From Bartonella grahamii subsp. shimonis (GTDB lineage: Bacteria > Pseudomonadota > Alphaproteobacteria > Rhizobiales > Rhizobiaceae): a stretch of 64,000 nucleotides of DNA. The stretch spans positions 1,426,001-1,490,000 of the forward strand of contig NZ_CP123961.1 of NCBI RefSeq assembly GCF_036327415.1, read 5' to 3'. The position numbers were made by a program, and so were the translations under genes. Numbering within the stretch: the stretch's first letter is position 1; every line of letters starts with the position of its first letter. Below, piece after piece: positions 14,844 to 51,792 of this stretch. The notes beneath the pieces were generated by a model. The model saw nothing but the letters and a program-made list of their open reading frames with translations, made no database searches and had not been told where the DNA came from.

Positions 14844-15417
14844 AAGTTAATATCCTGAAGGCGACATGCACAATTTTATTCAAACGAACGCTATAACTAT
14901 CCGTAAACATAAAAGGCTGTCTGCCATAAAAGGGAGGTACCAGAAAAACAGGACGGAACACTACGTGCAAAGGTATGACTGCATTTGCACCATTTCTCAT
15001 CATTATCTCCATCTGTTTTTTATGACTCATATTTCTTAAAAGTCTCCGGTAAAATAATCTTTAAAACAGTTCGGATATCCGAACCAACGAATCTTAAGTA
15101 ATGCAATCCTAATCTTATAACATAGAAATTTTTCATCCATAAAAAAGTCTCAACACATAATAGGCAAAAAACCTCTAAAAACAACTTAATATGAATTACA
15201 GATAATTTAGATGACTATTATCAGCTAGGAAGCATAAATATTCTTTTATGTTGATATCATGCGTTTGGCAAGTAACAATGTAAATCATGTATAATGATGA
15301 TATCTTTATGACCTTAATTTCGTTTTTGTGTGTTTATTTAGCTTTTATTGAAAAATAGAGAATAAATTGATATAACCAAGATAAATTATTACAAATGTAA
15401 TGTAGAGTATTTTGCTT
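14844..15417. other. Divergent promoter region between rne and amiC
   Basis: 574 bases without a gene. It must hold the rne leader (minus) and the amiC promoter (plus). A 7-bp inverted repeat GTGCAAA ... TTTGCAC at 14965-14971 and 14984-14990 would be in the rne leader, about 120 bases before its start. RNase E genes are commonly autoregulated through the 5' untranslated region, so this is where such control would sit. I see no conserved element I can name. Confidence 0.5.
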
Positions 15418-16647
15418 ATGATTAAGAGTTTTCTTACCAAAAAGCTGAAAACAGCTTATGGGGATGTTGTTGTGCTCATTACATACTTTTTATTATGTTT
15501 TTTGCTATTCCAAACTAGTGTTCAAGCCGCAGATCCTCTGAGACTTATTAATTTTAGAACCATTGGTGATAGTGTTCATACGCGTATTATTGCGGTTCTC
15601 AATTCAAAACCAAATGTTCGTTTACAGATTTTGGACAGTCCTGCACGTTTGATTATCAATTTACCTACAATTGACTTTTCGATGCAAAATACGCCTTTAA
15701 AGAAACAGAATACATTATCCGTTATGCTTTCAGATGTGCGTTATGCTTTTTCTGACATACAGACTTCACGCATTATTTTGACAAGTAAAACGGCTTTTGT
15801 GGTTGAAAAAAGTGTCGTAAAAAAATTAAATAATGGTTTATGGCAGTTGCTGATTGATATTCGTAAAAGTACACAAGAAAAATTTGATGAGATATTAAAG
15901 AACCAGCAAAGGACCAATTTTGATACAAAAACACCGTTAATTCCAGCATATAGTTTCCGTGTTGTTCTTGATCCTGGTCATGGTGGTATTGATGGCGGTG
16001 CACGGGGTGTTACTGGAATTTTAGAAAAAGATGTAACTTTAGACTTTGCGCGTGCATTACGAGACGAATTACAAAAGGACTCTCATATTACTGTTGCTTT
16101 AACGCGAGATTCCAATATTTTTTTAAGACTAAGTGAAAGAGTAAAAAAAGCGCAAGAGTTTGATGCCGATCTTTTTATATCTATTCACGCGGATACGATT
16201 GATTTACATTCTCTTCGCGGTGCCACAGTGTATACCATATCAGACAAAGCCTCTGATGCCATTGCAAAATCTTTAGCTGAAAGTGAAAATAAAGTTGATT
16301 TACTTGATGGTTTGCCTGCAGATGAAACGCTTGAAGTTACAGATATTTTGATGGATCTTACGCGACGTGAAACACATACATTTTCGGTTAATTTTGCAAA
16401 TAGTGTTATTTCAGATTTATCAAAGAATCATATTAACTTGATTAATAACCCACATCGGTATGCTAATTTTCAAGTTTTAAGAGCTTCAGATATACCCTCT
16501 GTCTTGATAGAGATAGGTTATTTATCCAATAAAGAGGACGAAAAGTTATTAAATGATCCTCATTGGAGAAAACAAATGGCAGCCTCTATTGCTCATTCTA
16601 TTCGTCAGTTTGCTGATTATAGGCAGAAAATGATACAGCCTCTTTAA
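15418..16647 (+). CDS. amiC: N-acetylmuramoyl-L-alanine amidase, AmiC type
   Basis: A periplasmic zinc amidase of 409 residues that cuts the bond between MurNAc and the stem peptide, needed for splitting septal peptidoglycan. There is an N-terminal signal segment ending near 'SVQAA' (about residue 39), an AMIN domain to about residue 150 for septal targeting, and an Amidase_3 domain starting at 'VLDPGHGGIDGG' (Zn ligand H188), with 'ISIHADT' and 'VLIEIGYLSN' supplying the other conserved His and Glu. The open frame extends to a TTG at 15412, but the ATG at 15418 is the natural start. mrcA follows 169 bases downstream, an amidase and a synthase side by side as in many Rhizobiales. Confidence 0.93.
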   Translation: MIKSFLTKKLKTAYGDVVVLITYFLLCFLLFQTSVQAADPLRLINFRTIGDSVHTRIIAVLNSKPNVRLQILDSPARLIINLPTIDFSMQNTPLKKQNTLSVMLSDVRYAFSDIQTSRIILTSKTAFVVEKSVVKKLNNGLWQLLIDIRKSTQEKFDEILKNQQRTNFDTKTPLIPAYSFRVVLDPGHGGIDGGARGVTGILEKDVTLDFARALRDELQKDSHITVALTRDSNIFLRLSERVKKAQEFDADLFISIHADTIDLHSLRGATVYTISDKASDAIAKSLAESENKVDLLDGLPADETLEVTDILMDLTRRETHTFSVNFANSVISDLSKNHINLINNPHRYANFQVLRASDIPSVLIEIGYLSNKEDEKLLNDPHWRKQMAASIAHSIRQFADYRQKMIQPL

Positions 16648-16816
16648 ATTTGTGAGAAAATAGAGTATCAATATGAGTTTCTAGTGTATTCTAGTATAAA
16701 TAAAAGATAGAAAGCAATTTCTCTTGATCTAAACCTTGTAGTGGTATCCATGTGATGTGGTTGAAATCAAGGTATTTTTTCTTTGATTAATTCTTAAGAA
16801 AGCGATAGCCGTTTTT

Positions 16817-19282
16817 ATGATAATTTTTTTAAGATATCTTCTTCGTTTTTTTGTTGCTATTGGACTTTGTGGTGCAATAACCTGGGGTGTTATAACGAAT
16901 AGTCAAGCAAATGTACTCCCTGATTATGAAGTTCTTTCACTTTATGAGCCGCCGGTAATGACCCGCGTCCATGCTTCTGATGGCCGTCTTATGGCAGAGT
17001 TTGCAACAAAACATCGCCTCTATTTACCGATTCAATCAATACCAACGCTTGTTATAAATGCTTTTATTTCGGCTGAAGATAAAAACTTTTATCATCATTT
17101 TGGTTTAGATCCTGAAGGACTTTCTCGAGCTTTGATCAATAATATTCGTAATATTGGTTCTGGAAGACGTCCAGAGGGCGCATCAACTATAACGCAACAA
17201 GTCGCTAAAAACTTCCTTTTAAGTTCAGAAACAACATTAGAGCGTAAATTTAAGGAAGCTATTTTAGCAATGCGTATTGAGAAAACTTATTCAAAAGATC
17301 ATATTCTCGAACTTTATCTCAATGAAATTTATCTGGGTCGTGGTACCTATGGTATAGCTGCTGCTTCTTTGACCTATTTCAATAAATCCGTCAATGATTT
17401 GACACTAGAACAATCTGCTTATTTGGCTGCTCTTCCAAAAGGACCAGCAAATTATGATCCATTTAAGAATACACAACGTGCTGTTGATCGGCGTAATTGG
17501 GTTATAGACCGGATGGTTGCAAATGGATATGTAACGCGTGAACAAGGTGAAAAAGCGAAAGCTAAACCTTTAGGAGCGACAATACGTGGGAGTGATAGCT
17601 ATGTTTTTGCGGCTGATTATTTTACTGAAGAAGTGCGACGTCGTTTAATACAACGCTATGGTGCTAAAACACTTTATGAAGGTGGGCTTTCCATTCGTAC
17701 AACGCTTGATCCGCATTTACAATTTATTGCGCGACGTTCTTTGCACGATGGATTAATTAGATTTGACCATTCGCAAGGATGGCGTGGGGCTTATGCGCAT
17801 ATTGATGAGAAAGGTGATTGGGGGATAGAACTTGCAAATATCACAGGGCTAAGTGATGTTCCTGAATGGCGTTTAGCTGTTGTTCTTTCTACTAATCCCA
17901 ATAAGGTAGAGATCGGTTTACAGCCACAGCGTGAAGCTTCAGGTATATTATCAAAAAAACGGGAAATTGCTGTTTTATCTGAAGCTGATTCAAAATGGGC
18001 ACTCCATGTTGTAAAAGAAAATGGTTATCGAAAAACTGTTCACAGCTTATCTCATGTCTTGCAAGTTGGGGATGTCATTTTTGTTGAAAAACTATCTAAT
18101 ACAAACAACACTTATCGTTTACAACAAATTCCAAAGGTTGAAGGTGCAATTGTTGCTATGGAACCTCATACAGGGCGCGTTCTTGCTATGGTGGGAGGAT
18201 TTTCTTTTGCCGCATCTGAATTTAATCGTGCAACCCAAGCTTATCGCCAACCGGGGTCTGCTTTTAAGCCTTTTGTTTATGCAGCAGCACTTGATAACGG
18301 ATATACACCAGCATCCGTTGTTTTAGATGGCCCCATTGAAGTTCACCAATATAATGGTGAAGTTTGGCAACCAAAAAATTATGGAGGTACCTTTGCAGGA
18401 CCTTCAACGTTGCGTTATGGTATTGAGCGTTCTCGTAATCTTATGACAATACGGCTTGCCAATGATATGGGAATGCCTCTTGTCGCTGAATATGCAGAAC
18501 GCTTTGGCGTGGTGGATAAATTGCAGCCTTATCTTCCCATGGCTTTAGGGGCTGGTGAAACAACAGTATTACGAATGGTTACAGCTTATTCAGTTATTGC
18601 TAATGGAGGACGCTCTATTAAACCTTCACTGATAGACAGAATTCAAGATCGTTATGGAAAGACAATTTATCGTCATGATGATCGTATTTGTGAAAATTGT
18701 AACACGCATTCATGGAATAATCAAAGTGAACCCACATTGATTGATGAGCGAGATCAAGTTCTTGACCCTATGACGGCTTATCAGATTACATCTATGATGG
18801 AAGGGGTTGTCCAGCGTGGTACTGCAGCACGTTTACGTTATCTTAATCGGCATATTGCCGCTAAGACAGGGACAACCAATGACTCTAAAGATGTCTGGTT
18901 TATGGGATTTACTCCTGACATTGTCGTTGGTATTTTTATCGGCTACGATCAACCTGCTCCGTTAGGATATAATGGAACCGGAAGTTCATTAGCTGCACCT
19001 ATTTTTGGTGACTTTATGGCAGATGCTCTTAAAGGGAAGCCAGATGTTCCCTTTAAGATGCCAAAGGGTATGATTTTAATGCCAATTAATCGGAAAACAG
19101 GAATGCTTGCGGAAAGAGGAGATCAAGATGTTATTATAGAAGCATTTAAACCAGGAACTGGTCCTGCTGATATATATCAAGTTATTGGAAGTACAAATTC
19201 TTTTCAAGAAGGTGTTCCTGCAGTAACTACTTCTCCACAAGTCAATAAAGCCCTTGAAAGTGGGACAGGTGGGCTGTATTAA
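16817..19282 (+). CDS. mrcA: Penicillin-binding protein 1A, bifunctional peptidoglycan synthase
   Basis: An 821-residue class A penicillin-binding protein that polymerises glycan strands and cross-links them in the inner membrane facing the periplasm. One membrane anchor at residues 7-28. The glycosyltransferase domain has 'AEDKNFYHHFGLD' with catalytic E87, 'GASTITQQVAKN' and 'LNEIYLGRGTYGI'. The transpeptidase domain has all three motifs: S481-A-F-K, 'SRN' and K683-T-G. An OB-type linker lies between the two, as in MrcA proteins. Size is standard. It stands between amiC and prfB; the order amiC-mrcA-prfB recurs in Rhizobiales. Confidence 0.95.
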   Translation: MIIFLRYLLRFFVAIGLCGAITWGVITNSQANVLPDYEVLSLYEPPVMTRVHASDGRLMAEFATKHRLYLPIQSIPTLVINAFISAEDKNFYHHFGLDPEGLSRALINNIRNIGSGRRPEGASTITQQVAKNFLLSSETTLERKFKEAILAMRIEKTYSKDHILELYLNEIYLGRGTYGIAAASLTYFNKSVNDLTLEQSAYLAALPKGPANYDPFKNTQRAVDRRNWVIDRMVANGYVTREQGEKAKAKPLGATIRGSDSYVFAADYFTEEVRRRLIQRYGAKTLYEGGLSIRTTLDPHLQFIARRSLHDGLIRFDHSQGWRGAYAHIDEKGDWGIELANITGLSDVPEWRLAVVLSTNPNKVEIGLQPQREASGILSKKREIAVLSEADSKWALHVVKENGYRKTVHSLSHVLQVGDVIFVEKLSNTNNTYRLQQIPKVEGAIVAMEPHTGRVLAMVGGFSFAASEFNRATQAYRQPGSAFKPFVYAAALDNGYTPASVVLDGPIEVHQYNGEVWQPKNYGGTFAGPSTLRYGIERSRNLMTIRLANDMGMPLVAEYAERFGVVDKLQPYLPMALGAGETTVLRMVTAYSVIANGGRSIKPSLIDRIQDRYGKTIYRHDDRICENCNTHSWNNQSEPTLIDERDQVLDPMTAYQITSMMEGVVQRGTAARLRYLNRHIAAKTGTTNDSKDVWFMGFTPDIVVGIFIGYDQPAPLGYNGTGSSLAAPIFGDFMADALKGKPDVPFKMPKGMILMPINRKTGMLAERGDQDVIIEAFKPGTGPADIYQVIGSTNSFQEGVPAVTTSPQVNKALESGTGGLY

Positions 19283-30627: not shown

Positions 30628-32268
30628 ATGGGTTATAATAAACAAAAATTAGAACTTAACTGGATTGGAAAAGAAAAACGCCCAAAACTAGAGCCTCGTA
30701 TCTTATTAGAAGATCTTGAAAAATCTTATCACGCTTCGCATCAAATATCATCCCAAGATATTTTTGATAATAAACTTATTTTTGGTGACAATTTGCTCGT
30801 ACTCAAAGCACTTGAACAAGAATATATGGGGAAGGTAAAATGTATCTATATCGATCCGCCTTATAATACAGGGAATGCCTTTGAACATTATGAAGATGGT
30901 TTAGAGCATTCCCTATGGCTCAGCCTTATGAGAGACAGGTTAGAATTGTTACATCATTTACTGGCAGATGATGGAAGTATCTGGATATCAATTGATGATG
31001 ATGAACAAGCCTATCTTAAAGTGATGATGGATGAAATTTTTGGTCGCCAAAATTTTATCAACAACATTATTTGGCAAAAAAAATTTGCTCCGCAGAATGA
31101 TGCAAAGTGGCTTTCAGACAATCATGATTTCGTGATAGTTTATGCCAAAGATAAAACGATTTGGCGCCCTCAATTGCTTCCTCGTTCAAGCGATATGGAT
31201 GCGCGCTATAAAAATCCTGATAATGATCCGCGTGGGTTATGGCAATCTGGAGATCTATCCGTAAAAAGAGTAACGCCTAAGGATATTTATGAAATCATCA
31301 CACCTTCTGGACGCAAGGTGATGCCTCCTAATGGTAGAAGTTGGGCTATAAGTGAAAAAAAATTCTCTGAATTATTAAAAGATAATCGTATTTGGTTTGG
31401 AACAGATAATAATGGAGTGCCACGTATTAAGCGTTTTTTATCAGAAGTAAAAAATGGTATGGTTTCAATGACGATTTGGCCCTATACAGAAGTGGGACAC
31501 AACCAAGATGCCAAAAGAGAAGTCAAAGTTTTTAATTCTGATAATGTTTTTACAACTCCCAAACCTGAGCGTTTAATGGAGCGCATCATTCAACTTGCCA
31601 CAAATCCCGGTGATCTTGTTTTAGATTCCTTTGCTGGTTCTGGTACGACTGGTGCTGTTGCTCATAAAATGGGACGCAAGTGGATTATGATTGAACTTGG
31701 TGAGCATTGTCACACCCACATTATCCCACGTTTAAAACAAGTTATTGATGGAACTGATCAGGGGGGAATTTCCAAAAGTGTCAATTGGCAAGGTGGCGGT
31801 GGATTTCGCTATTATCGTCTTGCACCTTCTTTATTACAAAAAGATCCATGGGGACAATGGATTATCAGTCGCGAATATAATGCTGCGATGCTTTCAGAAG
31901 CAATGTGCAAACATATGGGATTTACCTATGCACCTGATGAAAATCATTATTGGATGCAAGGGTATTCAACCGAAACAGATTATATTTACGTCACAACCAG
32001 CGCCATGTCTCATGAACAACTCCGTATAATGAGTGAAGAGGTAGGCTCTCATCGTACACTGCTGATTTGTTGTACAGCCTTTGATACGAAATCAGCATCA
32101 TTTGAAAATCTGACACTCACTAAAATCCCCCGTGCAGTATTAGAAAAATGCGAATGGGGAAGGGATGATTACAGTTTAAATATAGCCAATCTTGAACCAA
32201 TGATTATGGTAAAAGAAAACAACAAAGATAAAGATATTGCGCAAGCAGAATTAGATTTATTTGAATAA
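30628..32268 (+). CDS. Type III restriction-modification DNA methyltransferase (Mod)
   Basis: Site-specific adenine-N6 methyltransferase, the recognition and modification subunit of a type III R-M system, 546 residues. It is beta-class: catalytic motif IV 'DPPYNTGNAF' starts at D76 and precedes the AdoMet-binding motif I 'DSFAGSGTTG' at 333. The region between (about 130-300) should be the target recognition domain. No simple-sequence repeat is seen in the gene, so phase variation of the kind known for other type III mod genes is not indicated. AAGGA lies seven bases before the ATG. The restriction subunit follows 22 bases on. The gene is intact. Confidence 0.93.
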   Translation: MGYNKQKLELNWIGKEKRPKLEPRILLEDLEKSYHASHQISSQDIFDNKLIFGDNLLVLKALEQEYMGKVKCIYIDPPYNTGNAFEHYEDGLEHSLWLSLMRDRLELLHHLLADDGSIWISIDDDEQAYLKVMMDEIFGRQNFINNIIWQKKFAPQNDAKWLSDNHDFVIVYAKDKTIWRPQLLPRSSDMDARYKNPDNDPRGLWQSGDLSVKRVTPKDIYEIITPSGRKVMPPNGRSWAISEKKFSELLKDNRIWFGTDNNGVPRIKRFLSEVKNGMVSMTIWPYTEVGHNQDAKREVKVFNSDNVFTTPKPERLMERIIQLATNPGDLVLDSFAGSGTTGAVAHKMGRKWIMIELGEHCHTHIIPRLKQVIDGTDQGGISKSVNWQGGGGFRYYRLAPSLLQKDPWGQWIISREYNAAMLSEAMCKHMGFTYAPDENHYWMQGYSTETDYIYVTTSAMSHEQLRIMSEEVGSHRTLLICCTAFDTKSASFENLTLTKIPRAVLEKCEWGRDDYSLNIANLEPMIMVKENNKDKDIAQAELDLFE

Positions 32269-32290
32269 TATATAAAAAGCGGAGTTTTTC

Positions 32291-35041
32291 ATGAACGCTG
32301 TTGAAAAAAGGATTTCTGCTCGCTTATCGTTGCGTGATCCTCAACGTGAATCTTTAAATATTTTGGTAAAAATCTTAGAAAATATAGAACTTTCTAAAAA
32401 TGCTAATTTGGTTGCAGAGTTAGAAGTGATAAAAAATCTTTATCCTTCTGTACAAGATTTTGAACGAAACTTTCCCTCTTTTTGTTTTGCCTTAGCAACG
32501 GGTGTTGGAAAAACACGACTTATGGGTGCTTTTATCAGCTATCTTTATTTAACAGGTCGCAGTCGCCATTTTTTTGTTTTAGCGCCAAATTTGACTATTT
32601 ATGAAAAGTTAAAACAGGATTTTAGTCCCCAAAGTCCGAAGTATGTTTTCAGTGGAATGAGTGAATTTATTGCCAATAGACCTGTTATTATTACAGGTGA
32701 AGATTATGAAAGTGGTAAAGGTATTCGCGCTGATGAACACCATTTTCAAGGACAAAAGCGTTTGTTTGAGAATAGAGATACGGCCTTTATCAATATTTTT
32801 AATATTTCTAAAATTAATACAACAGATAATAAAAAAGGCGCATTAAAATCTAGTATTCCGCGGATTAAACGCTTACAAGAGACGATTGGCGAAAGTTATT
32901 TTGATTATCTCGCAAATCTTCCTGATTTAGTTTTGTTAATGGATGAAGCACATCGTTATCGTGCTTCTGCTGGTGCAGCGGCAATTAATGAGTTAAAACC
33001 TGTTTTAGGAATAGAGCTTACCGCGACACCAAAAACAATAGGTGCAAAACCTGTAGATTTTAAAAATGTTGTCTATAGTTATTCACTTGCAGAGGCTATG
33101 AGGGATGGTTTTGTAAAAGAACCTGCTGTTGCTACACGTAAAGATTTTCAACCTCGAAATTATACATCTGAGCAATTAGAACATATCAAATTACAAGATG
33201 CAATTCATGCCCATGAAAATGTGAAAGCAGATTTAATTGTTTATGCAAAAGATTATAACAAAAAGTTCGTTAAGCCTTTTATTTTAGTTGTCGCTCAAGA
33301 TACAAATCATGCACAAAAACTACGGAATTTATTGGAATCAGATGAATTTTTCGCAGGGGCTTATAAGGGAAAAGTTTTAGAGATTCATACAAAACAGTCA
33401 AATATAGAAGAAGATCAAAATATTCAAAAGCTTATTGCGATTGAGGATCCACAAGAGCCAACAGAAATTGTTGTTCACGTTAATAAATTAAAGGAGGGGT
33501 GGGATGTTACTAATCTCTATACTATTGTACCATTGCGTGCATCAGCTTCAGAAATTTTAACAGAGCAAACAATTGGGCGTGGATTGCGTTTGCCTTATGG
33601 ATGTAGAACAGGTGTAGAAGCTATTGATCGTTTAACAATTATTGCGCATGATCGTTTTCAAGATATTATTGATCGTGCAAACGATCCAAATTCAATTATT
33701 AAAAAGCATATTGAGATTGGAATAGGGGGGGATGTACCTTCTGAAAAGTCGGATATTGTGACGGTTCCATGTCAAGTAGAAGCTTTATTTATGCAAACGG
33801 TGGTAACACATAATTCCGATATAAATGGAGCACCTGATTTACAGGGTATCATATTACGTAATACAGCTTCTCCTACATTAACGCCTGAAGAGCAAGATAT
33901 TGCAGCGATCGCGTGGGATTTTATCAAAGAGAATGATAAACTGCCAAGTTCTCAAATGCTTTGTTCTGTGCAGATACAAGAAAAAATTGCTAATAAAGTT
34001 ATGAATATTAAGCCTTCATCACAAAAGTCTCTTGTGTCAAAAGTGGTTATAATTTTGACAAAACAATTAGCAGAATTGATGATAGATATTCCCAATATTG
34101 TACTCATTCCTTCGCGTGAGGTTACTTATGGTTTTTCTGATTTTGATTTGGAAAATTTAGAAAACTTAAATTTGCAACCTGTTAGTAAAGAACTTTTAAT
34201 TCGAGAATTGCGTACCCATAAAAGCATTTTTCTCACATCTAAGAATGAATATGTCAAAGAGCCTCATCTTGAAAACTACATTATTCGTGGTTTGATTGAT
34301 AATGACTTTGTCGATTATGATAACCATACGCTCTTATTACGAAAATTAGCTAGTCAGATAGTAGAACATTTCCGATCTTATTTACCCAATGATGCAGCCG
34401 TTGAAAACGTATTAATTCACTATCAACATAAGCTTACTAGTTTTATTGTTGCGCAATTAAGAGAACATCAATGGGAAACGCAAAAAGATTATGAGGTTAA
34501 AGTGACACGGGGTTTTACAACTTTATCGCCTATCCATTATGTGTTACCGCAAGGGACGTCTCCTCTTGATTTTCGTAATATTCCTGCCATTAAAAGCGAT
34601 ATTAAGAAACTTGTATTCAGCGGCTTTAGAAAATGCTGTTATCCTTTACAAAAGTTTGATTCAGTAGAAGGGGAGTTACGATTTGCTCAGATATTAGAGG
34701 ATGATGCACAAGTATTGAAATGGATGAAACCTGTACGGGGTTTTTTCAGAATAGAATATGATAAAGGATCAACTTATGAACCGGACTTTGTTGTAGAAAC
34801 GAAGGATGCCAAGTATCTTTGTGAGCCTAAAAAAGTCTCTGAAATGCAAAATCCTATTGTTTTAAAAAAGAAAGAAGCTGCAGTTCAATGGTGTTGTCAT
34901 GCAACGCGCTATGCGGCTACTTATGGCGGTAAAAAATGGTATTATGTTCTTATTCCCCATGATGCTATTAAAGCAAATAGTAGTTTTAAAGGTTTATGTG
35001 CTGAGTTTACCATTTCAGAATCTATACTTGAAAGCTCATAA
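32291..35041 (+). CDS. Type III restriction enzyme subunit (Res), helicase-nuclease
   Basis: ATP-dependent DNA-cleaving subunit of the type III system, 916 residues. The superfamily 2 helicase motor shows Walker A 'ATGVGKTRL' at 69-77, the DEAH box at 218-221, motif III 'LTATPK', and motif VI-like 'EQTIGRGLRLP'. The C-terminal endonuclease is a PD-(D/E)XK domain with D832, E836 and K838 in 'EPDFVVETKD'. Nothing is missing, so with the intact Mod the system may be active. It starts 22 bases after mod behind the leader GCGGAGTTTTTCAT, a sequence that reappears in front of the HrgA-like gene. Confidence 0.93.
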   Translation: MNAVEKRISARLSLRDPQRESLNILVKILENIELSKNANLVAELEVIKNLYPSVQDFERNFPSFCFALATGVGKTRLMGAFISYLYLTGRSRHFFVLAPNLTIYEKLKQDFSPQSPKYVFSGMSEFIANRPVIITGEDYESGKGIRADEHHFQGQKRLFENRDTAFINIFNISKINTTDNKKGALKSSIPRIKRLQETIGESYFDYLANLPDLVLLMDEAHRYRASAGAAAINELKPVLGIELTATPKTIGAKPVDFKNVVYSYSLAEAMRDGFVKEPAVATRKDFQPRNYTSEQLEHIKLQDAIHAHENVKADLIVYAKDYNKKFVKPFILVVAQDTNHAQKLRNLLESDEFFAGAYKGKVLEIHTKQSNIEEDQNIQKLIAIEDPQEPTEIVVHVNKLKEGWDVTNLYTIVPLRASASEILTEQTIGRGLRLPYGCRTGVEAIDRLTIIAHDRFQDIIDRANDPNSIIKKHIEIGIGGDVPSEKSDIVTVPCQVEALFMQTVVTHNSDINGAPDLQGIILRNTASPTLTPEEQDIAAIAWDFIKENDKLPSSQMLCSVQIQEKIANKVMNIKPSSQKSLVSKVVIILTKQLAELMIDIPNIVLIPSREVTYGFSDFDLENLENLNLQPVSKELLIRELRTHKSIFLTSKNEYVKEPHLENYIIRGLIDNDFVDYDNHTLLLRKLASQIVEHFRSYLPNDAAVENVLIHYQHKLTSFIVAQLREHQWETQKDYEVKVTRGFTTLSPIHYVLPQGTSPLDFRNIPAIKSDIKKLVFSGFRKCCYPLQKFDSVEGELRFAQILEDDAQVLKWMKPVRGFFRIEYDKGSTYEPDFVVETKDAKYLCEPKKVSEMQNPIVLKKKEAAVQWCCHATRYAATYGGKKWYYVLIPHDAIKANSSFKGLCAEFTISESILESS

Positions 35042-36860: not shown

Positions 36861-37397
36861 TTATTTTTCAATAATACCGCACGCCAAACGCGCACCACCT
36901 CCGCCAAGCGGTAATGGTTTGTCTGATTGATTGTCTGCCCCTAAATGAATAACTAAAGAGCGCCCTTTAATTTCAGAGATTTTTTTTAATCGTGGAGCAA
37001 GAACGCTCATCGTGGCATATCCTTGCTTATCAACATAGAGTGCTGGTAAATCACCAAGATGACCATTGACATTATAAGGTCCTAAATGTTTTCCGGTATG
37101 TTCCGGATCATAATGTCCACCTGCGTTTCCACCAATTATACCATCTTTTGTATCGCATGAAGGATTTACATGTACATGAAAACCATGCATCCCTTCTGAT
37201 AAAGTAGATAAATTAGGAATGAAAATCAAACCGTATGTATTTTCTTCAATTTTAATGTTACCAATAGGCTTTTTTGAATTATTAGCTTCTAATTTATAAA
37301 TATTTACTTGTGTTGATAGTGCTAATGCAGAATTTTTATGAATTAAAAATGCCATAAAAACCAATAATGATAATAATATTTTTTTCATAAAATACAT
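36861..37397 (-). CDS. sodC: Periplasmic Cu/Zn superoxide dismutase
   Basis: Secreted enzyme turning superoxide into peroxide and oxygen, helpful against host oxidative burst. It has 178 residues with a signal peptide to about residue 26 ('ALA'). The copper and zinc ligands are in 'HGFHVHVNPSCD', 'GGHYDPEHTGKH' and 'SLVIHLGADN', and a disulfide pair is offered by 'PSCD' and 'RLACGI'; the 'PLPLGGGGARLACG' end is typical of bacterial SodC. Upstream AAAGG favours the first ATG at 37397; a second ATG lies nine bases later. The gene stands alone on the minus strand. Confidence 0.94.
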   Translation of the reverse strand: MYFMKKILLSLLVFMAFLIHKNSALALSTQVNIYKLEANNSKKPIGNIKIEENTYGLIFIPNLSTLSEGMHGFHVHVNPSCDTKDGIIGGNAGGHYDPEHTGKHLGPYNVNGHLGDLPALYVDKQGYATMSVLAPRLKKISEIKGRSLVIHLGADNQSDKPLPLGGGGARLACGIIEK

Positions 37398-47042: not shown

Positions 47043-48086
47043 CTAATCCTCATGAATGATCTTATGAACTTTAAAAAGTAAGTTAATAACAAACTGCTTT
47101 TTATCGAGATTAAACAGTTGTATTTCCTCTATTTCTTGATGAATCTCCTGCCATTTTTTAGCATATTTTTTTGAGAGAAATAAATCTCCCTTTTCAACGA
47201 GCATGATAGCTTTTTTTTGAATTTTATTAAGAATTTCATCACAAAATTGTTGAAATTGGAATGTAGAAGAAGCAGATGAAAATGTTTGTGCAAGAGTGTG
47301 TACAGTCGTTGCGTTACAAATTGGTTTCTCTAGGAGAGCATCAATTGTTTTAATAATTTCAAGACCGCCATGGCAAATAAGTAAAGCAGCTTTTCGAGGA
47401 CTTCCTTTGGATTTTTTAACAATCATTTCAATTGTTTTCTCATCAGGTAAATCCTGATTGGCGAAAATATGTGTAATAACTTTTTTCATTTCATCGTTAT
47501 TCAACGGACGAAAAGAAATTTTTTGACACCGAGAATGGATTGTTGGAAGCAATTTTCCTGAAGAATGCGCGATAATAACAAATAACGTTTTTGTAGGTGG
47601 TTCTTCAAGTATTTTGAGAATTGCATTTGCTGCATTTCTATTCATATCATCTGCAGAATCAATAATAACAATACGCCATCCATTATCTTGCGATGTTCGG
47701 CTTAAAAAATGCATAATATCACGAATATCATCAACAAGTATTCCTGTTTTAAACTTTTGCGTTTTTACATCAAATCGACGTGAAATATATAAAAGACCAG
47801 GGTGGCTTCCTTGTGTAATTTGGCGCCATGGAGTAGAATAAGGATCGGGTTTCAAGAAAGCCCCCTGTTGAGAACTTAAAATGTTCCAAGCAAGATGAAA
47901 GGCTAATGTAGCCTTTCCGATCCCATACTCTCCTTCAAATAATAATGCATGATGCAAACGCTCTTCTTTAAGCATTTGTGTCAAAAAATGACGAACATCC
48001 TCATGACCAAAGACAACACTATTCTGGGACGGTGATAAAATTGTATCAATATCATCATATTGGCGTAAGATATTTACATTACTCAT
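47043..48086 (-). CDS. holB: DNA polymerase III delta prime subunit
   Basis: Clamp-loader subunit of 347 residues working with DnaX and HolA. The AAA+ part starts at 'VVFGHEDVRHFL'; the P-loop reads 'EGEYGIGKATLAF', with Ala where a Thr/Ser is usual, in line with delta prime being a poor or non-ATPase; the sensor region is 'IDSADDMNRNAANAILKILE' and 'SRCQKISF'. The ATG at 48086 overlaps the tmk stop by four bases (ATGA), and is preferred to the more distant start at 48116. Confidence 0.9.
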   Translation of the reverse strand: MSNVNILRQYDDIDTILSPSQNSVVFGHEDVRHFLTQMLKEERLHHALLFEGEYGIGKATLAFHLAWNILSSQQGAFLKPDPYSTPWRQITQGSHPGLLYISRRFDVKTQKFKTGILVDDIRDIMHFLSRTSQDNGWRIVIIDSADDMNRNAANAILKILEEPPTKTLFVIIAHSSGKLLPTIHSRCQKISFRPLNNDEMKKVITHIFANQDLPDEKTIEMIVKKSKGSPRKAALLICHGGLEIIKTIDALLEKPICNATTVHTLAQTFSSASSTFQFQQFCDEILNKIQKKAIMLVEKGDLFLSKKYAKKWQEIHQEIEEIQLFNLDKKQFVINLLFKVHKIIHED

Positions 48087-48727
48087 GAAAGTTGATCCAA
48101 CAATAGCTGATGACAAATATTTTTTATTTGATGTGCAATGGCTTCCACTGAGCCAGTGGCGTCAATGACTCGAAATCTATGGGGTTCCTGTTTGGCCAAT
48201 CGAAGAAAAGCTTGACGCCTTTGTTCTTGAATTTCTAACTGATCTTTTTCAAAATAATCAATTTCTTCTGTTCTTTTTCTTCGTAAATTTGCACGCTTCA
48301 TACCACACATTGCTGGCATATCTAATAAAAATGTTAAATGAGGAAAGATACCATTGAGCGCAATACACTCTAAAACAGAAAGAAGAGAAGAACTGACTGT
48401 ATCATTGAGACCTTGATAAACGCGTGTAGAATCAATAAAGCGGTCACATAAAACGATTTTACCTTTTTGCAAAGCAGGTGCGATAACCTCGGTCATATGG
48501 TCGACACGTGCTGCTGTAAACAAAACAGTTTCAATCAACGGCCCATACTGTTGCACCTGTCCCGACAACAAAATATGCCGGATTGCTTCTGCTCCTGGCG
48601 TTCCTCCTGGTTCTCGTGTTGTGACAACATCATAACCTTGGTGAGAGAGAGACTCAGCAAGTAAAGAAATCTGCACCGTTTTTCCTACCCCGTCCCCTCC
48701 TTCGAATGTAATAAAATAGCCTGACAC
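48083..48727 (-). CDS. tmk: Thymidylate kinase
   Basis: Phosphorylates dTMP to dTDP; 214 residues from a GTG at 48727. The P-loop is 'FEGGDGVGKTVQ' just after the start, followed by the 'TREPGGTPGAEAIR' and 'DRFIDSTRVYQG' motifs and a lid region 'RKRTEEIDYFE'. The longer frame to a TTG at 48781 would overlap the dac gene, while AAGG lies six bases before the GTG, giving the family-like 'SGYFITFEGG' start. It forms an operon with dac upstream and holB downstream. Confidence 0.93.
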   Translation of the reverse strand: MSGYFITFEGGDGVGKTVQISLLAESLSHQGYDVVTTREPGGTPGAEAIRHILLSGQVQQYGPLIETVLFTAARVDHMTEVIAPALQKGKIVLCDRFIDSTRVYQGLNDTVSSSLLSVLECIALNGIFPHLTFLLDMPAMCGMKRANLRRKRTEEIDYFEKDQLEIQEQRRQAFLRLAKQEPHRFRVIDATGSVEAIAHQIKNICHQLLLDQLS

Positions 48728-48755: not shown

Positions 48756-49919
48756 CTACAAATATTTCCGTAACCATCCAATTGTTATTTCATAGAATGC
48801 ATTTTTTACTTTTGCAAAGAAACTTCCTTCCTGAACATTCATTCCGGCAAAAACTGGTTTTTCCAAAAGAACCTTTTTATCTTCTAAAATTTGAATAACG
48901 CCAACTGATTGCCCAGAAACAATGGGAGCTTTCAATGGACCATGATATTTAATTTTTGCTTTAACATTTACTTTTTTTTCATTCGAAAGCATAAAACTTA
49001 TTGGTTTTTTAACAATGAGTGGAACAAAATTTTGCTTACCACCATAAACAGAAGCACGACCAACCGTTTCTTCTTTTGTGAAAATCGTTTTAAGATCAAA
49101 TGCCGTCATTCCCCATTGAAGAATGCGTTCTATTTCTTTTGTATATTTTTTACTATCTTGCAAACCATTGATTGCTAAAAAAAGACGTCGATGATTTTTA
49201 GAAATACTGGCAACCATTGAAAAACCTTCTTTTTCACTGTAGCCAAAACCAAATCCTTCTACACCAATTTCCTTAGAAATAAGAGGGTTTTTATTCCGTT
49301 GAAAAATATTATTCCACGTAAAATGAGGCTCACAATAAAGTGCATAATAATCCGGATATTTCTGAACAATATGACGTGCTAATATAATCATATCACGCAC
49401 TGTGACAAACTGTCCCTCTTCGGGTAGCCCTGTTGCATTAACAAAATGACTCTGAGATAACCCAACTATTTTTGCGCGCTGATTCATCAGTTTTGCAAAA
49501 TGAGCCTCATCTCCTGATATTCCTTCAGCAAGAATAATAGCAGCATCATTTCCATTCACAATAATTAAACCACGTAAAAGATCAGAAACACTGATTTCTG
49601 TCTTTATCTTTGCAAACATAGTGGTTGTACCGGAAGGTGCTCCACCTTTGCGCCAAGCATTTTCACTAACCTTGAATTTCTGCGTACTCTTTAATAATCC
49701 CTTCTTTAAGTGATGAAATACGACTTCCACTGTCATCAATTTTGCTAATGAAGCAGGAAAAAAAGGAATATCACTTTGTTTTTCATAAAGTATTGTCTCT
49801 GTATTATCATCGAGTAACAATAATTGTGGTGCAGAAATTTGAAAATATTCTGCTCTCCCCCACGTGTCAAATGCCAATACCCCCCATAAGGTCAATAAGA
49901 TCCTTAATGTTATATACAT
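48756..49919 (-). CDS. D-alanyl-D-alanine carboxypeptidase family protein with lost catalytic motifs
   Basis: A 387-residue PBP5/DacF-type protein encoded ahead of tmk. It has a signal peptide to about residue 24 and the SxxK motif intact as S57-L-A-K60 ('FPASLAKLMTVEVV'). The second motif, normally S-G-N in 'LIVQSGNDA', reads 'IIVNGNDAA' (N122-G-N124). The third, normally K-T-G in 'DGLKTGYT', reads 'EGFGFGYS' (G224-F-G226). The C-terminal PBP5 beta domain and a terminal amphipathic helix are kept, and the frame is intact. A strong GGGAGGAG five bases before ATG 49919 decides the start. I infer weak or no carboxypeptidase activity; a binding or scaffold role is possible. Confidence 0.85.
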   Translation of the reverse strand: MYITLRILLTLWGVLAFDTWGRAEYFQISAPQLLLLDDNTETILYEKQSDIPFFPASLAKLMTVEVVFHHLKKGLLKSTQKFKVSENAWRKGGAPSGTTTMFAKIKTEISVSDLLRGLIIVNGNDAAIILAEGISGDEAHFAKLMNQRAKIVGLSQSHFVNATGLPEEGQFVTVRDMIILARHIVQKYPDYYALYCEPHFTWNNIFQRNKNPLISKEIGVEGFGFGYSEKEGFSMVASISKNHRRLFLAINGLQDSKKYTKEIERILQWGMTAFDLKTIFTKEETVGRASVYGGKQNFVPLIVKKPISFMLSNEKKVNVKAKIKYHGPLKAPIVSGQSVGVIQILEDKKVLLEKPVFAGMNVQEGSFFAKVKNAFYEITIGWLRKYL

Positions 49920-50874: not shown

Positions 50875-51792
50875 TTAAAACAGCTGCAACCAATTGACCT
50901 TCATTTTTTTGTTTAGCTTATTTATAGAGGCAACTTGATCGAATGGCATCGGCTTATCAAGCATGATAGGACCAATTTCTGGCAATTTAACTGCAACAGT
51001 TTTATTACGCTGTTCCTGTTCAACAGCAGTTGCTTTAGCTAATTCTTCTTTGTTTCCTGTATTGCGCTGCTCTTTTAACAAAACAGTTTCTCTTTTTTTC
51101 GAAATATTTTCCGACGCTAATGAATATGAGGCAGCATTTCCAGGAGTATAAGAGGCCATTAAATATGCACCATCATAATAGCCAACGGGCGCTTCAGCAA
51201 TATATTCTACTTTAACATCTGCAACCCCCCTATCTACATACCCCAGTATTGCCGCAGCTTGCCTTGATAAATCAATGATTCTGTCTTTCATAAAAGGTCC
51301 GCGATCATTCACTCTAACAATGAGTGAAGATCCATTTTTCAAATTAGTAACACGAGCATAGCTAGGTAGAGGCATTGTAGGATGAGCAGCAGTCAAAAGA
51401 TTCATGTCATAAATTTCACCGTTGGCAGTTAAACGTCCATGAAAATCTGAACCATACCATGATGCTTCGCCAACACGTTTATACGTTGGATCATTTTGAG
51501 GATAATACCACTTTCCTTTTATTTGATAAGGTTTACCAACAATAGCTCGCCCACGCTTTTTTTCTTCCGATTGATTCTTCTTATTAGATACTTGTTGAGG
51601 TAGTACAGAAGTGTTTACGTCAATTGGTTTATTATGATAGGAATCTTTTATATGATAGGAATCTTTTATTGAAAAATTCATAGTTTGGCTTGCGCAACAA
51701 GATACCAGTGACTGAGAAATGACGATCATAGAAAACAATTGAAGCGTTGGTTTAATAATAAAAGTAAATTTCTTTTTTCTATTTGAAGGCAT
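50875..51792 (-). CDS. rlpA: Septal ring lytic transglycosylase RlpA family lipoprotein
   Basis: A 305-residue RlpA protein acting on naked glycan at the septum. The signal peptide ends in a lipobox 'SLVSC', so it is probably an outer-membrane lipoprotein. The double-psi beta-barrel core runs from about residue 100: 'GEASWYGSDFHGRLTANGE', 'AAHPTMPLPSYARVTN', 'VRVNDRGPF' with the conserved Asp and Arg. There is no SPOR domain at the C-terminus, unlike E. coli RlpA. Residues near 43-54 contain a tandem 'IKDSYH' pair from an 18-bp duplication. The dac-tmk operon would be its usual next neighbour, but an integrase remnant lies between. Confidence 0.9.
   Translation of the reverse strand: MPSNRKKKFTFIIKPTLQLFSMIVISQSLVSCCASQTMNFSIKDSYHIKDSYHNKPIDVNTSVLPQQVSNKKNQSEEKKRGRAIVGKPYQIKGKWYYPQNDPTYKRVGEASWYGSDFHGRLTANGEIYDMNLLTAAHPTMPLPSYARVTNLKNGSSLIVRVNDRGPFMKDRIIDLSRQAAAILGYVDRGVADVKVEYIAEAPVGYYDGAYLMASYTPGNAASYSLASENISKKRETVLLKEQRNTGNKEELAKATAVEQEQRNKTVAVKLPEIGPIMLDKPMPFDQVASINKLNKKMKVNWLQLF
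51634..51669. repeat. 18-bp tandem duplication inside rlpA
   Basis: ATGATAGGAATCTTTTAT occurs twice in a row. Being a multiple of three it keeps the frame and doubles the hexapeptide IKDSYH in the flexible stretch between the lipid anchor and the barrel. Confidence 0.9.

What the first reader, a model, noticed from the sequence alone, without database searches (positions are those of the whole stretch)
48756..49919. D-Ala-D-Ala carboxypeptidase homologue with two of three catalytic motifs replaced
The gene is intact, full length, has a strong ribosome site and keeps SxxK (S57-L-A-K60), but SxN is NGN at 49548-49556 and KTG is GFG at 49242-49250. In PBP5-type enzymes the Ser of SxN and the Lys of KTG take part in catalysis. 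An intact frame with both lost suggests selection for a different role, such as substrate binding or a partner of divisome proteins like RlpA and AmiC, or an early stage of decay.
Basis: partly seen in the sequence, partly recalled or inferred. Interest (0 to 1): 0.72.

Follow-up and report, generated by a model that had tools for sequence, protein, structure and literature searches.

The report
Cell-wall enzyme kept without its chemistry
A bacterial cell-wall trimming enzyme has lost amino acids needed for its chemistry in Bartonella and in many related soil bacteria, yet the gene is kept intact and in place, so the protein probably now binds or organises the cell wall instead of cutting it.

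Summary
The gene at 48756-49919 (-) is an intact PBP5/DacF-type protein of 387 aa with SLAK kept, SxN = NGN and KTG = GFG. The altered motifs occur in all 63 Bartonella genomes with a match, two of them pseudogenes. The same rlpA-dac-tmk orthologue lacks the KTG lysine in 44 of 88 other genomes that I read of its family, among named genera in Brucella, Mesorhizobium, Aminobacter and Phyllobacterium; in 7 of 8 Phyllobacterium even the nucleophile serine is alanine. All 35 unlinked paralogues that I read in 23 such genomes keep all three motifs. The altered proteins are under purifying selection like that on the neighbour tmk: dN/dS 0.21 v 0.21 in Bartonella, 0.06 v 0.05 in the serine-less set. 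Most likely it is a maintained pseudo-carboxypeptidase with a non-catalytic cell-wall role. General decay is not supported, although 7 of 71 Bartonella genomes lack the gene beside tmk.

The parts
48756..49919 (-). dac gene: PBP5/DacF-type pseudo-carboxypeptidase, 387 aa
49925..49932 (-). ribosome-binding site GGGAGGAG
   Evidence: sequence
49173..49844 (-). Peptidase_S11 domain, residues 26-249
49740..49751 (-). SxxK motif kept: SLAK, residues 57-60
   Evidence: S57 and K60 in 61 of 61 intact Bartonella rows
49548..49556 (-). SxN site: NGN, residues 122-124
   Evidence: N122 and N124 in 61 of 61 intact Bartonella rows
49242..49250 (-). KTG site: GFG, residues 224-226
49290..49292 (-). Lys210 at the place of E. 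coli Arg198
   Evidence: Lys in 61 of 61 Bartonella rows; Arg in all 75 intact rows
49143..49145 (-). Tyr259 at the place of E. coli Arg248
   Evidence: in 61 Bartonella rows His 25, Arg 21, Tyr 13, Lys 1, Val 1; Arg in all 75 intact rows
48828..49100 (-). PBP5_C domain, residues 274-364
48759..48821 (-). possible C-terminal membrane-anchor helix, residues 367-387
   Evidence: weak: hydrophobic moment of the last 18 residues reached by 198 of 2000 shuffles; by analogy with PBP5 (recalled)
48083..48727 (-). tmk, thymidylate kinase, conserved downstream neighbour (start codon chosen by eye)
   Evidence: downstream in 86 of 88 family loci
50875..51792 (-). rlpA-like gene (DPBB_1), conserved upstream neighbour
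   Evidence: upstream in 82 of 88 family loci

Best explanation
The gene encodes a maintained pseudoenzyme: a PBP5-type D,D-carboxypeptidase at the rlpA-dac-tmk locus that has lost normal catalysis but kept its fold-defining residues, its PBP5_C domain and perhaps its membrane anchor. Its most likely action is to sit on the outer face of the inner membrane and bind D-Ala-ending peptidoglycan stem peptides, or partners of the cell-wall machinery, without cutting them, so placing or limiting other enzymes at growth sites, while intact S11 paralogues do the trimming. Shown by sequence: motif loss, its spread, synteny, purifying selection, intact paralogues, kept scaffold. Inferred: absence of carboxypeptidase activity, the binding role, the place in the cell. 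In Bartonella the pocket has changed further (Asn122 and Lys210 fixed, Arg248 equivalent often lost), so its ligand there may differ.
For: Lysine absent in 63 of 63 Bartonella, 44 of 88 other family and 7 of 40 other order rows. Purifying selection like tmk's in Bartonella (0.213 v 0.214), in named lysine-less rows (0.141 v 0.110) and in 11 rows whose nucleophile is Ala (0.062 v 0.050). 46 of 56 positions that are at least 95% conserved in intact enzymes are kept in lysine-less Rhizobiaceae and 44 of 56 in Bartonella. Asn112 and Arg248 equivalents are in 44 of 44 lysine-less Rhizobiaceae rows, Arg198 in 84%, all three in 11 of 11 Ala-nucleophile rows. Unlinked paralogues are intact in 35 of 35 read. 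K213R in E. [quoted passage not shown]
Against: No activity, binding or localisation data. The gene is missing or broken in 9 of 71 Bartonella genomes, so it is dispensable there. E. coli PBP5 S44G loses its septal place and does not complement (PMC2909392 passages), so a dead PBP5 is not automatically useful. Substrate-side Arg248 is not kept in most Bartonella (40 of 61 differ), which weakens D-Ala binding there. The anchor helix is not significant.
Confidence: 0.6

Rival explanations
1. Residual covalent chemistry: with SxxK kept, the protein still acylates on Ser57 (with beta-lactams or a D-Ala peptide) but does not turn over, acting as a covalent trap or sensor.
For: SxxK kept in 63 of 63 Bartonella rows and the serine in 40 of 44 lysine-less family rows; K213R of E. 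coli PBP5 still binds penicillin (title only).
Against: The nucleophile is Ala in 7 of 8 named Phyllobacterium, which are conserved as strictly as tmk, so covalent binding cannot be the shared role. 74 of 387 columns are invariant in Bartonella in any case.
Confidence: 0.15
2. Altered catalysis: the pocket with Asn122 and Lys210 is a new active site for another ester or amide.
For: In Bartonella S57, K60, N122, N124 and K210 are each 61 of 61.
Against: Residues at the KTG lysine site vary (43 G, 11 A, 4 V, 1 each S, C, R of 61); 74 of 387 columns are invariant anyway.
Confidence: 0.09
3. Slow decay: a redundant carboxypeptidase gene on its way out.
For: Pseudogenes in 2 and absence beside tmk in 7 of 71 Bartonella genomes; the seven fall in three groups on a tmk tree with weak support between them.
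Against: dN/dS far below 1 and like that of tmk; intact frames across many genera.
Confidence: 0.08
4. Still an active D,D-carboxypeptidase, with other residues doing the work of Lys and Ser.
For: Fold-level residues kept; SxxK kept in Bartonella.
Against: No relocated KTG; the K213R result (title only); Ala nucleophile in Phyllobacterium.
Confidence: 0.08

Closest known systems
E. coli PBP5/PBP6/DacD (class C low-mass PBPs, peptidase family S11)
   Same: S11 and PBP5_C domains over the whole length; SxxK; best structure match is a PBP5-type carboxypeptidase.
   Different: SxN serine and KTG lysine lost, Arg198 to Lys, Arg248 to Tyr in the window protein.
E. coli PBP5 K213R and S44G laboratory mutants
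   Same: Same positions as those lost here (lysine) or lost in Phyllobacterium (serine).
   Different: Made in the laboratory; S44G disturbs localisation and does not complement (PMC2909392 passages), whereas here the forms are kept by selection.
Degenerate LytM regulators such as EnvC and NlpD (recalled, no call)
   Same: A cell-wall peptidase fold without catalysis kept for a regulatory role.
   Different: Metallopeptidase fold, not S11.

Membership tests
Peptidase S11 / PBP5-type protein family (homology) | S11 domain and PBP5_C domain above curated cut-offs | tested here: met
   193.8 bits v 27.6 and 70.2 bits v 21.2
Active D,D-carboxypeptidase of family S11 | SxxK motif | tested here: met
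   SLAK at residues 57-60
Active D,D-carboxypeptidase of family S11 | SxN motif | tested here: not met
   NGN
Active D,D-carboxypeptidase of family S11 | KTG motif | tested here: not met
   GFG
Active D,D-carboxypeptidase of family S11 | release of D-Ala | not testable with these tools
   needs the protein
Maintained pseudoenzyme | catalytic residues lost | tested here: met
Maintained pseudoenzyme | purifying selection on the altered form | tested here: met
   pairwise dN/dS; no codon model was run
Maintained pseudoenzyme | a function without catalysis | not testable with these tools
   needs experiments
Maintained pseudoenzyme | fold intact in a model or structure | not tested
   structure prediction switched off

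The most novel reading that the evidence does not exclude
In the Rhizobiaceae the PBP5-type protein between rlpA and tmk has been turned, perhaps several times, from an enzyme into a non-cutting receptor for D-Ala-ending peptidoglycan: the lysine lost first, then the SxN serine, and in Phyllobacterium the nucleophile itself, with the residues that would hold the substrate kept outside Bartonella and the trimming left to paralogues. It would report or protect new cell wall in these bacteria.
Probability: 0.33. Interest if true: 0.78.

Novelty: new variant of a known kind. Interest (0 to 1): 0.6.

Why it matters
Many listed proteins of this group carry names such as D-alanyl-D-alanine carboxypeptidase, and counts of such enzymes in Rhizobiales rest on annotation (for example four annotated genes in S. 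meliloti, PMC7327166 passages). If the proteins are non-catalytic, work on cell-wall growth in Mesorhizobium, Phyllobacterium, Brucella and Bartonella must look for the enzyme elsewhere and for a binding role here. Phyllobacterium offers a natural test, since most of its orthologues read here lack the nucleophile.

Tried and rejected
Relocated motifs: no KTG elsewhere in the protein; the glycines at 222, 226 and 232 align with those of intact enzymes. Bartonella-only quirk: rejected. Paralogue mix-up: rejected by synteny and because the 12 unlinked second copies form a clade of their own (SH-aLRT 94).

Number of independent losses: left open. The trees of the gene itself put most lysine-less Rhizobiaceae in one clade, with 5, 2 and 3 changes of the lysine state on 152, 100 and 96 rows. 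A tree of rlpA+tmk gives 16 changes on 149 rows and rejects one clade of 65 rows (AU p 0.018; L104 and L128 had been set aside beforehand because the dac tree placed them apart). The reciprocal test on dac found a better tree with a mixed group of 15 rows held together than the quick tree had, so the quick dac trees were not optimal; a careful search still kept the large clade (bootstrap not settled). Motif columns were not removed in any of these dac trees.

A loop state GGAPS is in 43 of 44 lysine-less but 7 of 44 lysine-bearing other Rhizobiaceae; it may be only a lineage marker. Promoter scan: near chance (13 found, 10.1 expected). Anchor helix: not significant. Searches for an earlier report listed none by title or abstract start; the library holds open-licence papers only, and I saw listings, not the papers, save for passages in those named here. 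PMC8546619 and PMC6107284 were searched for terms and gave nothing on this protein.

Full report
Observation. The gene at 48756-49919 on the minus strand starts with ATG behind GGGAGGAG and encodes 387 aa without a stop. It is a full-length PBP5-type protein: Peptidase_S11 at residues 26-249 and PBP5_C at 274-364, related to solved PBP5 structures. SLAK is at 57-60, NGN at 122-124 in place of SxN, GFG at 224-226 in place of KTG. The coordinates of the finding are right. The genome (2.19 Mb, one contig) is a Bartonella, judged from close named relatives. Three S11 proteins were found in it, and the other two have all three motifs.

How widespread. Of 71 genomes of the genus, 63 have a match at E 1e-60 or better. 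In all 63 the SxN serine is Asn, the KTG lysine is gone and SxxK is kept; two of the 63 are pseudogenes with several stops. Of the other eight, seven have rlpA and tmk together without a dac gene between them, four of these with short remnants in a tblastn at E up to 1, and one, an incomplete assembly, gave no tmk. On a tmk tree the seven fall in three groups, with weak support between them. Among 88 other genomes of the family that I read, 44 keep all three motifs and 44 lack the lysine; of these 44, 25 also lack the SxN serine and 4 the nucleophile serine. The 88 are not a random sample: 28 were the best matches to the window protein and 60 were picked from the listed matches, so weaker matches are under-represented. 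Of 40 representatives of other families of the order, out of 134 genomes of 150 with a match, 31 are intact, 7 lack the lysine and 2 are altered elsewhere. Of 4894 database homologues the best 120 were listed; all 120 lack the lysine and keep SxxK, but these are the nearest kin.

Names. In 80 named records found with an alignment of 11 lysine-less and 3 intact relatives, the lysine is absent in 28 of 31 Mesorhizobium, 8 of 8 Phyllobacterium, 3 of 3 Aminobacter and 6 of 6 Brucella, Ochrobactrum and Falsochrobactrum, and present in 5 of 5 Nitratireductor and 4 of 4 Hoeflea; in 7 of 8 Phyllobacterium the nucleophile is Ala.

Same gene. rlpA lies upstream in 82 of 88 and tmk downstream in 86 of 88 family loci. 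Sixteen of 199 family genomes have two matches at E 1e-50. I read 12 of the 16: in 12 of 12 the tmk-linked copy lacks the lysine and the unlinked copy is intact. In ten further genomes with an altered linked gene, 38 S11 matches were found and 30 given as loci, 21 of them unlinked; all 21 are intact and seven unlinked ones were not read. With the two of the window's genome this makes 35 of 35 unlinked paralogues read that are intact. Further, weaker S11 proteins of the 12 two-copy genomes were not read.

Selection. Pairwise Nei-Gojobori dN/dS in 48 Bartonella rows, in the pair class with dS 0.1-0.5 (369 pairs), medians: dac 0.213, S11 domain 0.163, PBP5_C 0.262, tmk 0.214. In the class 0.5-1.0 (730 pairs): 0.216, 0.161, 0.322, 0.217. 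In the class 1.0-2.0 (25 pairs): 0.160, 0.105, 0.234, 0.159. Named lysine-less rows: dac 0.141, tmk 0.110 (51 rows, 538 pairs); named intact rows: 0.259 and 0.216 (28 rows, 158 pairs). The ratio of dac to tmk is about the same with and without the lysine, so no relaxation is seen at this resolution. Pairs share history and no codon model was run.

What is kept. Of 56 positions at least 95% conserved in 75 intact rows, 46 are kept at 90% or more in 44 lysine-less Rhizobiaceae and 44 in 61 Bartonella rows. In the lysine-less Rhizobiaceae the equivalents of E. coli Asn112 and Arg248 are in all 44 and Arg198 in 84%; that the two arginines bind the substrate carboxylate is recalled, not from a call. 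In Bartonella Arg198 is Lys in 61 of 61, Ser110 is Asn in 61 of 61, and Arg248 is His in 25, Arg in 21, Tyr in 13, Lys in 1, Val in 1.

Order of loss. Among the 88 family and 40 order rows, the SxN serine is lost with the lysine kept in one row (L179, KPG), while the lysine is lost with the serine kept in 20 (19 and 1). This fits lysine first, then serine. How often it happened is unsettled: see Tried and rejected.

Mechanism. K213R in E. [quoted passage not shown] Since the Ala-nucleophile proteins are conserved about as strictly as tmk, a role without covalent chemistry is the simplest shared function. Binding of D-Ala-ending peptides is the favoured form of it because the substrate-side residues are kept outside Bartonella; scaffolding is not excluded. 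Against an easy story, E. coli PBP5 S44G loses its septal place and does not complement (PMC2909392, passages). In A. tumefaciens a gene called dac is synthetically essential when one group of LD-transpeptidases is deleted (PMC11527210, passages); whether it is this orthologue was not checked.

Novelty. Seven searches of the open-licence library listed no report of this; titles and abstract starts were read for the listed papers only, and most subscription papers are not held. The kind, a pseudoenzyme, is known; a maintained pseudo-carboxypeptidase of the PBP5 type across a family is, as far as these searches go, not described.

Noticed in passing
window 30628-35041 (+): Adjacent DNA methylase (N6_N4_Mtase, 546 aa) and helicase-type ResIII protein (916 aa), like a type III restriction-modification pair.
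   Followed up: no
window 15412-19282 (+): Amidase_3 gene (AmiC-like) followed by a class A penicillin-binding protein.
   Followed up: no
L239-L250: An unlinked, intact second PBP5-type copy in 12 family genomes forms a clade of its own outside the tmk-linked proteins (SH-aLRT 94); it may be an old paralogue or acquired.
   Followed up: partly
window 49611-49646, loop before the SxN site (residues 92-103): Loop sequence GGAPS goes with lysine loss: 43 of 44 lysine-less v 7 of 44 lysine-bearing other Rhizobiaceae, and 62 of 63 Bartonella. Lineage marker or adaptation is unknown.
   Followed up: partly
L165, L163: Two other families of the order have the most eroded motifs: SxxK lysine to Leu with SxN to IxY, and nucleophile to Asn with YxN.
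   Followed up: no
window 36861-37397 (-): Copper/zinc superoxide dismutase gene.
   Followed up: no
L224, L225, L227, L229: Short remnants of the gene between rlpA and tmk in four Bartonella genomes of one tmk clade.
   Followed up: partly
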